Assembly: GCF_028009165.1 (NCBI RefSeq)
Contig: NC_079242.1
Coordinates: 4,836,001-4,900,000 of the forward strand
Length of the DNA stretch: 64,000 bases
Direction of reading: 5' to 3'
Source: Akanthomyces muscarius
Lineage: Eukaryota > Ascomycota > Sordariomycetes > Hypocreales > Cordycipitaceae
Of the stretch, positions 565-8,624 are shown piece after piece (the stretch's first letter is position 1; each line of letters begins with the position of its first letter). The notes below the pieces were generated by a model that was not told where the DNA came from, searched no databases, and worked only from the letters and a program-made list of their open reading frames with translations. A program made the position numbers and the translations under genes.

Positions 565-3500
565 TTAAACTGTGCCGCGTCGCCTCCCCTCGCGGAACAG
601 GCTCGTCACCGCCGCAATCTTTTCCCCGCGCTCCTTTTCGAAAAACGCATTCACCTCGTACATCTTGACCACGTCCGACACCGTCATCACCAGGCTCTCC
701 TCGTCGTACAGGTCCCTCGCGGCCTTTTTGATCGCCACCACTTCCAGGTACAACCTCTCCGCGTCGCGAAACGCGCGCTGCCTCATGGCGTCCCGCCGCA
801 CCGCCTCGTGAGCAGCAGCAGCAGCCGTAGTGGCTCTATCGCTCATGCGTCGCCGTGGCGACGATGGTGGCGGCGGCAGTGTCGCACCGAGCTGATCTTG
901 GAGAGACTGGCCCTGCAGGTGCAGGCTGCGAGCCATGTGCTCCATGGTGGCGACGCAGTGCGGATGTGCGCGGCCGAGCGTCGGTAACAAAATGTCGAGC
1001 GCTTTTTGGTACTTGGTCTGCGCGGTAGAGTACCTGGCCCGCAAGTCGTCCATGGCGGCGTGGCTCTGGATGGCGAGGGCGGTGCGCGGGTGCTGCGGGC
1101 CGAGGCAGCGCGTCTTGATGTCGACGGACTGCGCGTAGAGCGCCTCGGCGTCGTCAATGGCAAACACCTCCTTGCAGATGTTGGCCAGGTCGTCGAGCGA
1201 GCCGAGCGTCATCGGATGGCCCTGGCCAAAGGTGGTTTGGTACGAGAGGTACACGCGGCGGTAGAGCACGTGCGCGTCATTCGCTTTACCCATGCGGTGC
1301 AGGGTGTGGGCAAGCATCTGGATCGTGCCGACCGTCTCGGCGTGAGCAGGACCGAGGGCTTGTTCCTGCTCGTGCTCGAGGGTCTCGAATTGGTGCTCGG
1401 CGGTGCTGAGCTCCCCGCGTGCGACATTCGCCGTTGCCTTGGCCAGGGCGAGACGGAAACCGAGTGCTTCTTCGACGGAGACCAGGTTAACTGCCATGAG
1501 GACTTGAATGCTTGCGTCCATTTGACCAATTTGCTCCAAAAGTTGGCTCAGGGATAGCGACGTCTGGATTTTCTCGAGCGGGTTCATAGAGTCAGTGTGC
1601 TGAAGAGCCAGCTTGAAACACCCAATTGCTTGTGTGATGGCACCTTGTGTCATGCACACGTTGCCAAGTATATCCCACGAGACGCTCTCTAGCTCAGGGG
1701 GCTCCTCTAGGATGGGCGAGCAGTCATCATAACAAACTTTGGCATGGGGGGCCATGACACGCCCGAATTTATGAACTTGTTGCAACGTGGATGATTCGTC
1801 GTTAGCTTTGCGGACGCCGTCAGCACACACATTGCATGCAAGCCATGCATGTTCTGCCTTGTCCTCTTCTGGTAGACTTTTGCGCACGAATTCACGCGCG
1901 TCAACATCCATCATGAACAGCGACGTCAAAGTAGAGCTTGTTGAGGTTGGCGACGAAGGCGACTCGGACGGCGATGAAAACTCAGAAGAGTCGCTAATGT
2001 AAACGGGATGGATGAATTGCTGGTCCATAAGATGCTGCAAAACGCCGTCTAGATTGTCTTGCATTTGAAGCGCTCGGTACGGTTAGTGCACGCAGTTCAT
2101 CGTGAGTTTGAACTTGACTCACTTTTAAGCTCCTCTACTGCCTTCCTGAAGCGCGGAGGGGTGCTGTTGGTATTTTGAAGGGATCCTAAAAATAGCGATG
2201 CGGGGACTGCCGACGAGGAGAGCAGAGCGCTTATACGCAGGATGAGCCTACCCGCAGGAGCTTGATCAACTGTAGAACCGAATAGACTCGGGCCTGGCAT
2301 AGTTTCAAGCAGACGCTCGTAATCCGAGACGAGGAGTTTCTTCGTGCGCATGGCTGATGCAGCCTGGGCTACACTCAGCGGGTGGCATTCCAGTCGCTGG
2401 ATGAGGTATTTTGCTGCTGTTGCTGCAACCATTTTAGCCTTTTCTCTCTATGGAAAAGACGAGATGCCAGTAATAGGAAGAAAACGGCAGAAGAAGAGGG
2501 AAGAAACGTTGTGGAAAACGTACCTTGTGTAGACTTCTCGAGATCCAAGTGTTCGGTACCAACGCTAAGCAACTCCAAGGCTTGCTCCTCGCTCATAGAA
2601 TGCACCCACACCTTACTGCCCCAGGTGCAGGCCTTCTCCCCTTTCGAGGTCAGTATGACCCTGCCCGAGAGCGTCAGAGGAATGAACTCCTGCACATTGT
2701 ACATGGGCTCAACGCCGTCAAAGACGACAAGCCAGTTGCCATTCTCCGGTTGCATGAGCCAGTCCTTGACGGCTCGCACAGCGGACATGACGCGGTTCTT
2801 GTCCAAATACAGGATGCTCTTTGTACAGACCATTTCCGCAACACCTGTAACGCCGAGCCGCTCCTCGACCTTGTCGCGCGGCATCTTGTCGGAGTAGTAC
2901 GAGACGAGATGGTTGGCAAAATCCAAATAGCTGCCCGCAACAGTCTCCCAGGACTCGGCCCATACCCAAAAGACGAAAGAGAAATCAGTCTGATGAAGCT
3001 GAATGTAGTGTTTCGCAAGTGTTGTTTTGCCCGTTCCGGATTGACCCCATAGATGTACGAACCGAAATGCGACGGACCCTTTCGTGGGGCCAGCATTGAA
3101 GATGGAGTTGATTTGCTGCATGATGTCATCGCGAGCAACGATGTGTTCGGGGTCATTTGGGACCTGGTATGGTATTGAATAACCGATACGGCGAAAGTCG
3201 ATGAGCCGAACTTGAGGCCTATTAGCAGCGACCTGTTCACGAACAAGCTTGTGACTTACGACTCGACACATCGAGTGCCTTTCTCTTTGCATCCACAAAT
3301 CCAGATTTGATGCTTGTGCTGACCATTTCTCGGAATTTATCGATAAACGACGTATAGTTGGCATCACGGCCGTGGAAACTGACGAGGTCGGAATGCGTCG
3401 CAACCAGGCCAATCTGGTCACCGTCCGAGCCAGTCATCGAGTGCTTCTTTTCCACCACGAAGCTCCCGCCCGACTTTTTCGTCTCGTAAAATGAGATCCT

Positions 3501-4317
3501 CGGCAGATTCGCCGCAACACCTTTGAACGCGCCCATCTGGCGTTCGAGCCACTGGAGGTCGTCTGGCTGGAGCTGCATTGGCGAGGCGGCGGAAGCGTCG
3601 TCGTGGTCGCCGCCGTGGTCCTTGTAACCGGACGTTCTGCGTATGACGTGGGCGAGCGGCGACGGCGACGACGGGCGTCCCGGGGCGATGGTGCCGAAGA
3701 AGGCGACGCCGCACGTCGACAGCTCGACGTTGCGGAGCAGCGGGTCGGTGGCCTCGCTGGAGAGGACGAGGGCGCGCTTGACGATCCAGCCTCCAAGGCT
3801 GTGGGCGATGAAGAAGAGAGGGCGTCGAGCGGTGCCGTCGCGGCGGCGCAGCGCAACGAGGTGTTCAGTCAGGTGCAGCGCGCGGCCGTCGAGCAGGTGC
3901 AGGACAATGTAGCGGTAGCCGGCGTCGGGATGCGAGGCGTAACCGTAGGTCATGATGCGCGCGTTGGGGACGTCGGCGCCGAGGAGCGCCTCGAGCCAGG
4001 GCCGGGACGCGCCGGACCCGGGATCGCGCGTGGTCCAGGCGCTGAAGCCCTGGTCGCCGAGGCCATGGACGGCAACGATGCTGAAGAGCGGTGCATTATC
4101 AGCGGTGGTGTTCTCAGTTGGGTATGCCGCTGCGTTTGTCTACTTGGATGGAAGAGTGATGTTTGTTGTGCAAAGTTCGGATCAAAACTCACTCAATCTC
4201 GGCCTGCGGGGGGTCTAGCACGACATTGAGGCCGCTGCTCTCACCGTGACGACGCCGTGAGACGGATCCTTTGACACGGTGGAAGAAGCCTCTCAGCGGC
4301 TCGAGAGCCTCCGACAT
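565..4317 (-). CDS. NLR-like receptor: alpha/beta-hydrolase, NB-ARC, TPR
   Basis: Five exons join in frame: 4317-4193, 4080-3260, 3210-2524, 2443-2123 and 2057-565, giving 1148 residues. Residues 1-41 are a short leader. Residues ~43-300 are a DUF676/PGAP1-like alpha/beta-hydrolase, with VHGLGD for the oxyanion turn, AHSLGG (nucleophile Ser136) and the late histidine in ATHSD (His271). Residues ~335-650 are an NB-ARC NTPase, with Walker A GQSGTGKT (371-378), Walker B LVVFD (Asp480) and GRVILTS after it. The last exon carries kinesin-light-chain-type TPRs with the LGxxHPxT signature. This is the architecture of fungal STAND/NLR proteins, in which ligand sensing by the repeats is thought to trigger NB-ARC oligomerisation and the N-terminal effector. 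No frameshift or lost catalytic residue is visible. The exon 2/3 junction, with acceptor CCTCAAG, is the least certain. A gasdermin-like gene lies directly upstream on the same strand. Confidence 0.85.
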
Positions 4318-5218
4318 TTCCGAGGCGGGGGGGAAGGGTTCGTGACGTTGCTTCGAATCAGGATCCCAGCATGTACATCAGAGGTGCAGCAGCGAGAAGT
4401 AGTAGCATCCCGGCCGTGCACAGATCTGCAGGACTATATACAACATGCCGGCTTTCTGCGAATGTCTGTTCAGGCTGAGCTGAAGAGGCCTTGTGCGTGT
4501 CGGCAAGTCACTCGTTTGGATAGCTGAGCCAAAAGGTGGCTGCACCAGGCAGTCAAACCCCGCAGGTGCGCAGTGTCAGGCGCTGACAGGCGTGGTCAGT
4601 GGGTGCCACAGCAATCCTTCCAGGTGGGCGAGTCGCTGTATTTACGGGTTTGGCGCCCTCCGTGGCGGCCTCTGCTGACCTGATCCGCGAAGCGTCCGCG
4701 AAGCACTGAGCCTGCTTATTCAGGCAAGGTTTTGTTAATTCTAATTTGGCGGGGTTTACTTTGTTCAATTTAGCATTGTTTTTCTTGTTGCTCCTTGAAT
4801 TTAGATGGCTTTTAAATAGATCACTGTGTTAAAGTTAGCCACTACCGATACAGAACCGTTATACTGGGGGCCTAGGTATTTGGTCGTATGAGAATGTTTG
4901 TACGTGTAATCTTTCATGACATGACACCCTCAACACTTAATCTCCCCTAATCTTTCTTTTGATTCATTCTATGTGATGATTTGCTCTGATTAATCTATTT
5001 CTTATTTCCCTCGTTCATTCCATCTCTCTCACTGCCTTCGAAGGCCGTGAGGACGGTGCTAGCACTGCTCCCATACAACGCATATAAAAACAAAAATGGT
5101 ATCATGACCTGACAAAACCGCCGATAAATCCAATCATACAAAGCCAGAAAAAAGAAAAGAAAACCTCTTGATTGTTTTCCGCACAGCTAAAGCATCAAGC
5201 AGTGGGCACTCGCTCATA
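4318..5218. other. 901-base gap: promoter side of the NLR-like gene, 3' side of the gasdermin-like gene
   Basis: The part near 4320-4680 is GC-rich. The part from ~4730 to 5170 is AT-rich, with poly-T/poly-A tracts. No open frame here has coding character. It should contain the promoter of the NLR-like gene and the 3' end of the gasdermin-like transcript. Confidence 0.4.
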
Positions 5219-6142
5219 CTACCCAACGACCTCGACATCAAACTCGAGCTCCCGCACAATCGCCTCGTCCAGCAGCGATGCGTTCGATCGTCGAGACGCT
5301 GGGCCGTCACCATTCGCGTGTTCCGACTCGGCCGGCGCGACGACGACCGACGCCGGAAGCGACCCTAGGAACGGCTCGACCTGTCCCGGCACGGGCCCGT
5401 CCTTGATCTCGGGCCAGTAGTCGGACCCGTCGTGCACCGAGAAGCCGTACTTGGGGCCCATGAGCATGGTGCGCAGCTTGGCGCGCTTGCCCGTCAGTTT
5501 CTCGAGCCGAATCAGCCGGTAGCCCAGAAACACAATCATCTCCTCGTCGTATGTGACCGAGCTGCCCTTTTCGCGCGCGACGTGGAAGCTCGCCTCGGCG
5601 CCCACGTCCACCCCGAGGCTCGGGTCCAGGGGCACCTTGATACCCGCGCCGCCGCCGCCGCTCCTCTCCTGGCTCTCCGTCGTCTCCAGGTTCGCCACGG
5701 TGACGATGTCGGTGATGAAGTAGCCCTGGTCGTGGTTGCTGCGCAGCAGCTCAAACAGCTCGTCGTAGTACTGCTTGTTCTGCAGCAGCGCCTTGAACTT
5801 TTCGCCCGGCGAGTCCATGTGCCACATGCGCGCGACCGTGGCGGCGTTGGAGGCCTTGCTGGCCCGCGCGCGCTGCGCGAAGAACTGCATAATGTCGTTG
5901 AACGAGGCCGACACGCGGGCGTCCTTGATGCGGTTCTGCCAAAAGGCCACGTTGCGCATCCGCACGGGCTTGGGGTCCAGGTCCATGACCATCTCCCGCG
6001 GCAGCGTCTCCGTCTTGTAGGGAATGCGCCGCTCGGTCGGCAGGTTGGGGTACTTGACGACGCTGCCTATGAGCTTGTCGCGGTACTCGCCGGCGTCGAG
6101 GCGCGGCTGCACGAGCCAGAGCGGCTTGGTTTCGTGCGACAT
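5219..6142 (-). CDS. gasdermin-like pore-forming protein (candidate cell-death executor)
   Basis: Single exon, 307 residues, starting at the Met before SHETKPLWLVQ. The frame stays open upstream to 6280, but that part is Asn/His/Asp/Thr-rich low-complexity sequence and is treated as leader. The middle has the layout of the gasdermin N-terminal domain. A helical stretch (~80-135) is followed by two long amphipathic beta-hairpins: YFITDIVTVANLE (141-153) to a Gly-rich turn and GIKVPL, then GVDVGAEASFHV (177-188) and TYDEEMIVFLGYRLIRL (197-213). Fungal gasdermins (RCD-1, HET-Q1) are of similar length, lack the large mammalian repressor domain and are switched on by cleavage of a short C-terminal tail. 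Here residues ~256-307 form a Ser/Ala/Glu-rich tail that could play that part. There is no signal peptide, so the protein should be cytosolic until activated. The family call rests on pattern, not on a search. Another beta-rich membrane-active protein is possible. Confidence 0.55.
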   Translation of the reverse strand: MSHETKPLWLVQPRLDAGEYRDKLIGSVVKYPNLPTERRIPYKTETLPREMVMDLDPKPVRMRNVAFWQNRIKDARVSASFNDIMQFFAQRARASKASNAATVARMWHMDSPGEKFKALLQNKQYYDELFELLRSNHDQGYFITDIVTVANLETTESQERSGGGGAGIKVPLDPSLGVDVGAEASFHVAREKGSSVTYDEEMIVFLGYRLIRLEKLTGKRAKLRTMLMGPKYGFSVHDGSDYWPEIKDGPVPGQVEPFLGSLPASVVVAPAESEHANGDGPASRRSNASLLDEAIVRELEFDVEVVG

Positions 6143-7022: not shown

Positions 7023-7430
7023 CTAGTAAGGGTTGCCTCCATTGTAGCCTCCGCCGCCGTTATAGCCTCCGTTTCCTCCGTCATATCCGCCATTGTTTCC
7101 GCCGCCGTACCCAGGCTCTTGACCGCCACCATATCCAGGTGCTTTGCCATGGCCACCAGTGATGAGGTTCTCGACGAGCTCGACCCACTCGCCAGCAATG
7201 CCAAAGGCTCCGTTGACAGTGTCTCCCACCGTACCGGAGATGTCTTCACCGCCGGAGCCTGACTTGGCAGTAGCGGCCTCACCTATACATAATGTCAAAT
7301 CTTGACGTGGTTATTCAGAGAGACAATTGTAGTTCTTACCTCGAACTTCAACAGCCGGGGCATTGTTGGCTGGCGCAGCCGCAGCGAGAGTCGCTAAAGC
7401 GCCGATAAGAGAAATTGTAGTGTATTTCAT
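7023..7430 (-). CDS. small secreted glycine-rich protein
   Basis: Two exons, 7430-7340 and 7282-7023, give 116 residues in frame. The donor is GTAAGA and the acceptor TATAG. The start is followed by a clear signal peptide, with a hydrophobic core (ISLIGALATLAAAAP), and a short propeptide-like stretch. The mature middle part is acidic. The C-terminal 45 residues are a GYGGG/GGYNGG repeat rich in Gly, Tyr and Asn, like cell-wall-associated or adhesive low-complexity proteins. No enzymatic motif or cysteine pattern is present, so it is not a hydrophobin. It lies between the gasdermin-like gene and the tyrosinase gene, and no functional link is visible. Confidence 0.75.
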
Positions 7431-8624
7431 TTTGTATGTTTGTAAAGTTGTTGAGTATAGTTTGGCCGAGTAGTTAATATGTGATTTAGTGATTGTGGTT
7501 GTTGTGATGCTCCAAAGGAAGTTGGGTACAGGTCGGGAGGATATCGGCTTACTTAAATAGATAATGAGTGAGAAGCCTAATCTGCGTAGCTATAAAATCC
7601 TTCAGCAAGAATTAAAGCGTCAAAGTCCGTTAAATCTCGTCATAGTCAAGCGAGATGATGCGCCTCGGCTCGGCTATGCTAGGTCATATTACGGAATGTC
7701 TCGGTGAGTATCTAGTGAGTACTGTAGCTGCTACTTTGACACCTAGCCGGGTGGCGCCGTAGGGGCATTTGAGTGACCGAGGTGAGAATATAAGCGAGAT
7801 CTCGGTCAGAGAGCCGGGATGAAAGATCTCCGGCTTTAGTCTCAACTCTAGGACCCAATTTAATGCTATCGCACCATCTGCACACTATACGTTGAGGCGA
7901 AGCTTATTAAAAAGGCCGAGCCCGAGCGTCTGCCGGTTCAGCCTTACGTGACCCAAGACCGTGATCACCGCGCTCGATCCACTTTGTGTCCAAGAAACCA
8001 CAGTACTTCTTCACACTTCTGCCATTGTAGGATATAACTATCTTTAGGGTTCCGCGACCGTGAGGTGCTTGAGCCTCCACTGCCTGAGCGTCAGAGCAGA
8101 AGTAGAATCGGCAATTTCTCACCTTTCTTCGGCACAGTTTAAACGGCGGCCATTCTGACCGCCTCGTTGGCCAAAAAAACCAACGTAATAGCCGTTACCG
8201 TCGTGTTGGGACTGGGGCTGGTACAATAAAAACCTTGTTACATTCTGGACCATAGCACACATCTTCATTGGTATTAGCAAGGCGTGATTAGCATCGTCTT
8301 TGCATAACTCAGCCTGTGCATGGACGATAATCTAGGCCAAGTTAGAATAACTCGTCATGCTGATTGTGGTAGTTTCGTGACCTTTGCCCGGCAGGGGGAT
8401 GATGCAGATACGGCCATCATCACGGTCCTGCCTCGGCATTGAAATCAGCTTTTTACCATGTAGCCGCAATTTAATGTAATGTCATATAAGCGTAGAGCTT
8501 ACTACACCGGCCTGGATCTACATCATCATGCTCAGTTACTGTGCACACCGGGACAATCTCCAATATTGCACTTCCTCGCCTAACTGCCTCACACTTTTTC
8601 GCCCTTGTATTGCAAAATCCCAGT
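7431..8624. promoter_or_regulatory. divergent intergenic region between the glycine-rich and tyrosinase genes
   Basis: This 1.2-kb gap separates two divergently transcribed genes, so it holds both promoters. It contains CCTCGGC at 7663-7669 and the near-palindrome TGCCTCGGCA at 8429-8438, about 190 bases before the tyrosinase start. A minus-strand open frame at 7907-8122 has partly protein-like content but could not be joined into a gene. Confidence 0.45.
8429..8438. promoter_or_regulatory. CCTCGGC-type motif, tyrosinase promoter
   Basis: TGCCTCGGCA is an inverted repeat with TGCC/GGCA arms. The same core recurs upstream of four other enzyme genes between 12 and 18.5 kb, which suggests a shared regulator. 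Function is inferred. Confidence 0.35.

What the first reader, a model, noticed from the sequence alone, without database searches (positions are those of the whole stretch)
565..6142. Gasdermin-like gene beside an NLR-like receptor: a candidate two-gene cell-death module
The 307-residue protein at 5219-6142 shows a paired long beta-hairpin layout like gasdermin N-terminal domains. The next gene on the same strand is a full NLR (hydrolase, NB-ARC, TPR). Known fungal gasdermins (RCD-1, HET-Q1) work in allorecognition, and many are said to lie near protease or NLR genes that activate them by cleavage. Here the NLR effector domain is an alpha/beta-hydrolase with an intact Ser136/His271 rather than a known protease, so the activation logic could differ: lipid-level triggering, or cleavage by an enzyme elsewhere.
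Basis: partly seen in the sequence, partly recalled or inferred. Interest (0 to 1): 0.85.

Follow-up and report, generated by a model that had tools for sequence, protein, structure and literature searches.

The report
Gasdermin-like protein paired with a hydrolase NLR
A fungus of the insect-pathogen group carries a predicted pore-forming cell-death protein with the gasdermin fold next to an immune-type receptor whose enzyme domain looks like a lipase instead of the usual protease, a pairing found in several relatives that suggests an untested way of switching such pores on.

The parts
5219..6142 (-). gasdermin-like gene, 307 aa (P0001), uninterrupted ORF
5405..6142 (-). predicted gasdermin-type pore domain, residues 1-246
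   Evidence: gasdermin rows of VIA-align span residues 1-245; net charge +3
5498..5728 (-). hairpin 2, residues 139-215, Gly/Ala-rich tip; the only region whose sequence stands out against bacterial gasdermins
5285..5404 (-). variable linker, residues 247-286
   Evidence: spacing from the DYWP motif to the L-x-F-D motif is 34-86 aa in the 58 of 65 orthologs that could be measured (54 in P0001); pLDDT mostly under 50
5222..5284 (-). conserved acidic C-terminal tail, residues 287-307 (helix then ELxFDxEVVG), candidate inhibitory element
   Evidence: L299 in 75, D302 in 73, G307 in 72 of 78 rows; mean charge of last 25 aa -5.6 in 65 orthologs
4193..4317 (-). NLR exon 1: start of the alpha/beta-hydrolase domain
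3260..4080 (-). NLR exon 2: SesB-like alpha/beta-hydrolase with Ser136 (3798-3800), Glu241 (3483-3485), His271 (3393-3395)
   Evidence: Ser in 41 of 42 covered rows, Glu 43 of 43, His 43 of 43, of 44 orthologs; that these three form the triad is inferred from conservation and motif
2524..3210 (-). NLR exon 3: NB-ARC with P-loop GTGKTT
2123..2422 (-). NLR exon 4: end of NB-ARC and following region
   Evidence: region assignment partly inferred
565..2072 (-). NLR exon 5: TPR array (kinesin-light-chain / nephrocystin-3 type)

Best explanation
The two genes form a receptor-executioner cell-death module of Hypocreales. The 307-aa protein is a divergent gasdermin: a basic pore-forming domain (1-246) held inactive by a conserved acidic C-terminal tail (287-307) on a variable linker. 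The neighbour is an NLR: TPRs sense a ligand, NB-ARC oligomerises with nucleotide, and the SesB-like Ser-Glu-His hydrolase becomes active. I think it most likely that the hydrolase, acting as a lipase or esterase and not as a protease, makes a lipid product or membrane patch that recruits and frees the gasdermin, which then forms pores and kills the hyphal compartment. Shown here by computation: gene structures, conservation of the putative triad and P-loop, gasdermin-type predicted fold, tail and linker pattern, co-location in several genomes, no S8/CHAT neighbour. Inferred: pore formation, autoinhibition by the tail, functional link, lipid substrate.
Against: Model confidence is modest and no Foldseek E reaches 0.001; in the second Foldseek list an unrelated chain is fourth (E 0.26). 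hmmsearch of the family profile finds no gasdermin in the PDB at E 10, and no Pfam gasdermin match exists. hhalign's own probability is only 5.7% and 2.2%; the reversed bacterial profile still scores 19.8 against 25.3, and global mode is not above shuffles; the N-terminal, middle and C-terminal regions alone are not above shuffles. PADLOC bGSDM (5 of 56 members, best E 0.0034) is no stronger than PADLOC PDC-M07A (6 of 56, best 0.0046) or NCBIfam noise (0.0034). Co-location could be ordinary conserved gene order; flanking genes were not tested as a control, and a shared megabase contig does not show adjacency. Metarhizium acridum tags are far apart on contigs of different length (J3459_015895, J3459_016513). 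P. takamizusanense has Gly in place of the putative catalytic Ser. No functional or expression data.
Confidence: 0.55

Rival explanations
1. The hydrolase domain is itself the protease: the activated NLR cuts the linker (or trims the C-terminal tail) of the gasdermin, as S8 and CHAT receptors are reported to do.
For: Most known fungal pairs are thought to work by cleavage (PMC10197012 section 15; PMC9815663 passages). The protein has a variable linker and a conserved tail. Some alpha/beta-hydrolase-fold enzymes are serine peptidases (recalled).
Against: SesB-like domains are annotated as lipase/esterase. The linker varies in length and no shared cleavage motif was noticed in it, though none was searched for systematically.
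Confidence: 0.2
2. A third, unlinked protease cleaves the gasdermin; the NLR acts on a separate pathway or as a scaffold.
For: The genome has 30 S8 and 5 CHAT match stretches elsewhere.
Against: Repeated co-location with this NLR and its conserved enzyme residues point to the neighbour.
Confidence: 0.15
3. The pair is unrelated in function; its adjacency is inherited gene order in Hypocreales, and the gasdermin-like protein has a housekeeping or non-lytic role.
For: Both genes look like conserved orthologs; identity matrices correlate (r 0.86 over 13 pairs, Mantel 0 of 5000), as any vertically inherited pair would. The left flank holds an ordinary gene (Metallophos ORF).
Against: A gasdermin fold beside an NLR is a known functional pairing. 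Of the 15 genera named among the 44 NLR orthologs, 14 are also in the gasdermin-like lists; no hit is named Fusarium or Beauveria in any of them. But 9 of 23 gasdermin-like genera are missing from the (candidate-limited) NLR list.
Confidence: 0.2
4. The protein is not a gasdermin but another member of the wider gasdermin/MACPF/CDC pore-forming superfamily, or an unrelated alpha-beta fold with a similar hairpin.
Against: Gasdermins from fungi, animals and bacteria fill the top 14 and 13 rows, with RCD-1 ahead, and CDCs are not listed for the second model.
Confidence: 0.12

Closest known systems
RCD-1 of Neurospora crassa (fungal gasdermin)
   Different: No sequence match at E 10. RCD-1 works by two antagonistic alleles without cleavage; here one gene beside an NLR
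HET-Q1 and the protease-clustered fungal gasdermins (S8 or CHAT, including S8- and CHAT-NLRs)
   Same: Two-gene cluster of a gasdermin and a multidomain receptor; short C-terminal part (about 5 kDa lost from HET-Q1 on cleavage, PMC12881547 passages)
   Different: Partner enzyme is an alpha/beta-hydrolase, with no S8 or CHAT match within 110 kb. Known fungal gasdermins are said to follow birth-and-death evolution with over 20 copies in some species (PMC10197012); this one has a single match in its genome and order-wide orthologs
Bacterial gasdermins (bGSDM; PDB 7n50, 7n51, 7n52)
   Different: Weak sequence support only; no N-terminal acylated Cys (a recalled feature of bGSDM): P0001 and 29 other of 65 orthologs have no Cys at all. 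One bGSDM ORF fetched here sits between two Peptidase_S8 ORFs
SesB-like/NB-ARC/TPR fungal NLRs (for example Pa_2_10340 of Podospora anserina, PMC4986451 passages)
   Same: Same three-part architecture
   Different: Here co-located with a gasdermin-like gene in several genomes; no such pairing in the passages read

Membership tests
Gasdermin family | N-terminal pore-domain fold | tested here: met
   Top 14 and top 13 VIA entries all gasdermins for two models; Foldseek first hit RCD-1, E about 0.03. Predicted only; model confidence modest (65.5, 60.6)
Gasdermin family | Sequence homology to known gasdermins | tested here: inconclusive
   PDB hmmsearch none at E 10; PADLOC bGSDM 5 of 56, best E 0.0034, at noise level; hhalign local score reached by 1 of 400 shuffles, probability 2-6%
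Gasdermin family | Removable inhibitory C-terminal part | tested here: inconclusive
   Conserved acidic tail on variable linker is seen; inhibition not shown
Gasdermin family | Oligomeric membrane pores and lytic death | not testable with these tools
   Needs experiment
Protease-gasdermin two-gene module of fungi | S8 or CHAT protease within 10 kb | tested here: not met
   At E 0.001 the nearest CHAT match is about 112 kb away and the nearest S8 on this contig about 2.5 Mb; other protease families not scanned
Fungal NLR with SesB-like effector | alpha/beta-hydrolase N-terminus with catalytic residues | tested here: met
   Abhydrolase_6 in 39 of 44, DUF676 in 19 of 44, mostly weak; Ser, Glu, His kept. 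No SesB-specific model was available
Fungal NLR with SesB-like effector | NB-ARC with P-loop | tested here: met
   NB-ARC in 43 of 44; P-loop GK in 44 of 44
Fungal NLR with SesB-like effector | C-terminal repeat sensor | tested here: met
   TPR_12 in 44 of 44; kinesin light chain TPR match E 6.9e-27
Allorecognition (het) locus | Strain polymorphism or idiomorphs under balancing selection | not tested
   No population data; two substitutions between the window and RCEF 1005 gasdermin-like proteins

The most novel reading that the evidence does not exclude
An ancient, order-wide fungal pyroptosis-like module in which an NLR triggers a gasdermin through a lipid or ester hydrolase instead of a protease: activation by membrane chemistry, not by cutting the gasdermin.
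Probability: 0.35. Interest if true: 0.88.

Novelty: new variant of a known kind. Interest (0 to 1): 0.7.

Why it matters
Most reported fungal and bacterial gasdermin genes sit beside a protease gene; RCD-1, switched by its own alleles, is the noted exception (PMC12881547, PMC10197012; passages). A gasdermin-like gene paired with a SesB-like hydrolase NLR would give a third mode, and would give the common SesB-like NLRs a concrete executioner to test. The order includes Trichoderma, so laboratory genetics is feasible.

Tried and rejected
Pfam, NCBIfam and PDB sequence searches of the 307-aa protein and its family gave nothing usable. Viral and prokaryote contig scans with the family gave no relative, and 189 genomes of one bacterial phylum gave one match at E 0.84. 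The bGSDM model found nothing in the own genome; it rang in none of the 14 controls either, so this says nothing about other gasdermins there. CDC toxins appear below the gasdermins for model 1 and are not listed for model 2. A palmitoyl-switch idea (hydrolase as thioesterase) was dropped: 30 of 65 orthologs have no Cys, and the most shared Cys (position 197) is in 20 of 65. PDB sequence search with the hydrolase exon found no hydrolase, so lipase versus peptidase could not be decided by sequence. A first NLR splice (exon 5 from 2048) was replaced by the junction of the public protein (2072) on checking.

Rows dropped: A1 holds P0001 and 55 of the 84 hits; A4 holds 78 rows chosen by hand, leaving out short fragments and near-duplicates. 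The split of A4 into 65 orthologs and 13 divergent rows is by eye, without a tree. The linker was measured in 58 of 65. One search used 13 of the 14 same-contig pairs (P. lavendulum left out) and for T. asperellum took a gasdermin-like protein of another strain (P0037) than the one on the shared contig (P0038). The pairing count compares contig lengths and tags only; the other NLR hits of the 44 come from species or assemblies that could not be matched. L016 was fetched and not analysed. In VIA rows 6vie and 8gtj are complexes; I took the matched chain to be the gasdermin from its length and range.
Full report
What is there. The window lies at G000:C2:4836001-4900000 of a 36.2 Mb, 12-contig genome. 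Its 307-aa protein at 5219-6142(-) is 99% identical to LEL_04084 of Akanthomyces lecanii RCEF 1005, differing at two residues, so this is that species or a very near one. It is the only match in the genome at E 0.001.

The family. By eye there is a main group of orthologs at roughly 44-99% identity and a divergent group (about 31-48%), with three copies in one Purpureocillium lilacinum contig set and two each in two Dactylonectria species. No hit is named Fusarium or Beauveria; this is an observation on the lists, not a proof of loss.

Sequence test. I found two bacterial gasdermins in 195 genomes of one phylum and one on a Gloeothece plasmid, and added two from PDB alignments. hhalign of the family against these five gives a local score of 25.3, reached by 1 of 400 column shuffles (the reversed profile gives 19.8); in global mode it is not above shuffles (346 of 400 as high). 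hhalign's own probability is low, 2.2%, and 5.7% against two of them. Split by region, only hairpin 2 stands out (0 of 300 as high); the N-terminal (112), middle (151) and C-terminal (211 of 300) parts do not. The matched stretch pairs hairpin 2 with hairpin 2. Shuffling columns also destroys beta alternation, so part of this may be shared amphipathic pattern. PADLOC's bGSDM model matches 5 of 56 members, best E 0.0034; another PADLOC model, PDC-M07A, matches 6 of 56 at 0.0046 and better, and NCBIfam gives unrelated matches of like strength, so alone this proves nothing. In a rescan of 10 members two matched bGSDM, both in register (167-222 on 167-221, 167-220 on 167-219).

Layout. In 65 orthologs the pore domain aligns nearly without gaps to P0001, the spacing between the DYWP and L-x-F-D motifs varies from 34 to 86 residues (58 measured), and a tail with the pattern I-x-x-E-L-G-F-D-x-E-V-V-G is kept also in the divergent group (L299 in 75, D302 in 73, G307 in 72 of 78 rows). 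The first 245 residues are basic (mean +2.7), the last 25 acidic (mean -5.6). This is what a short-tailed, self-inhibited microbial gasdermin would look like; inhibition itself is inferred.

The NLR. The joined exons give 1,146 aa. A search with an earlier 1,138-aa version gave 49 hits at E 1e-20 or better; I take the first 44 (39-97% identity) as orthologs; the named ones are Hypocreales to my knowledge. Ser136 is kept in 41 of 42 covered rows, Glu241 in 43 of 43, His271 in 43 of 43, the P-loop GK in 44 of 44. The uncovered rows are short gene models; P. takamizusanense has Gly for Ser. The hydrolase is the best conserved region (0.77; TPR 0.74, NB-ARC 0.68).

Pairing. In the window the two genes are neighbours on one strand, with no ORF of 100 aa or more between them in the listing of 33 ORFs. 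Three have consecutive locus tags (A. album, C. luteorostrata, P. takamizusanense); T. ceciliae identifiers differ by two. On megabase contigs this shows only the same contig. Metarhizium acridum is a possible exception (J3459_015895 and J3459_016513, different contig lengths). The rest could not be compared. Of 15 genera named for the NLR, 14 are in the gasdermin-like lists; of 23 genera there, 9 are not in the NLR list, which was limited by its candidate cap. Identity matrices of the two proteins over 13 pairs correlate at r 0.86, and the gasdermin-like protein is the more conserved of the two in 63 of 78 comparisons, which fits shared vertical descent and speaks against rapid diversification of the gasdermin-like gene. 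Whether flanking genes are equally conserved was not tested.

No protease neighbour. In the own genome, at E 0.001, the nearest CHAT match is about 112 kb away and the nearest S8 match on the contig lies at position 2.3 Mb, about 2.5 Mb away. The left flank carries a Metallophos ORF and the right flank a tyrosinase. As a contrast, one bacterial gasdermin ORF fetched here lies between two Peptidase_S8 ORFs.

What is known. PMC10197012 (section 15 and passages) gives about 1900 fungal gasdermins in 400 genomes, about 63% clustered with S8 and 19% with CHAT proteases, some as NLRs, and describes a death-and-birth regime. PMC9815663 (passages) says NLRs with CHAT and S8 domains lie beside gasdermin genes. 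PMC12881547 (passages) gives HET-Q1/HET-Q2 and RCD-1. PMC12258605 (passages) has no occurrence of the word gasdermin in its main text. SesB-like domains are called lipases and likened to human SERAC1 (PMC4986451, passages). A search for papers holding both SesB and gasdermin found three: two opened, neither describing such a pair in the passages read, and one on Alzheimer's remedies seen in the listing only. Searches with Trichoderma, Hypocreales, NB-ARC and structure prediction showed no report of it in their listings. The primary survey (Clave et al. 2022) was not held, so I cannot say whether this family is already in its list.

Judgement (my estimates). Gasdermin fold about 0.85 likely; functional pair with the NLR about 0.75; hydrolase activity needed for triggering about 0.6; triggering by lipid or ester hydrolysis and not proteolysis about 0.35-0.4.

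Noticed in passing
P0076, P0080-P0091 and P0094 (hits): A divergent second group keeps core motifs and the ELGFDxEVVG-type tail, but hairpin 2 is 72-78 residues (13 rows) and less Gly-rich by eye; several copies in Purpureocillium lilacinum and Dactylonectria. It may have lost pore formation or act as a regulator.
   Followed up: partly
P0135 (NLR of Purpureocillium takamizusanense): Putative catalytic Ser136 is replaced by Gly (AHGLGG) while Glu241 and His271 remain; a natural test of whether the enzyme is needed.
   Followed up: partly
window 3211-3259 and 2073-2122: NLR introns 2 and 4 (49 and 50 bases) use AAG and GAG acceptors; the public RCEF 1005 protein uses the same junctions.
   Followed up: yes
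P0099 (public NLR model of A. lecanii RCEF 1005): Lacks a 15-residue stretch that is open and in frame in the window's exon 4; possibly an annotated intron that is not real.
   Followed up: no
L012 32-3563: A bacterial gasdermin ORF lies between two Peptidase_S8 ORFs, the classical protease arrangement, in contrast to the window.
   Followed up: yes
L014 5001-5957: A protein annotated only as hypothetical (WP_013334731.1) on a Gloeothece plasmid matches a bacterial gasdermin at E 9e-19; transposases and a VapC toxin gene are in the same stretch.
   Followed up: no
hit lists: No hit named Fusarium or Beauveria in the lists of either family; the pair may have been lost together there.
   Followed up: no
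window about 7023-7440 (-): Small glycine-rich, probably secreted protein with GYGGGNNGGYDGGN repeats on the far side of the gasdermin-like gene (read by eye).
   Followed up: no
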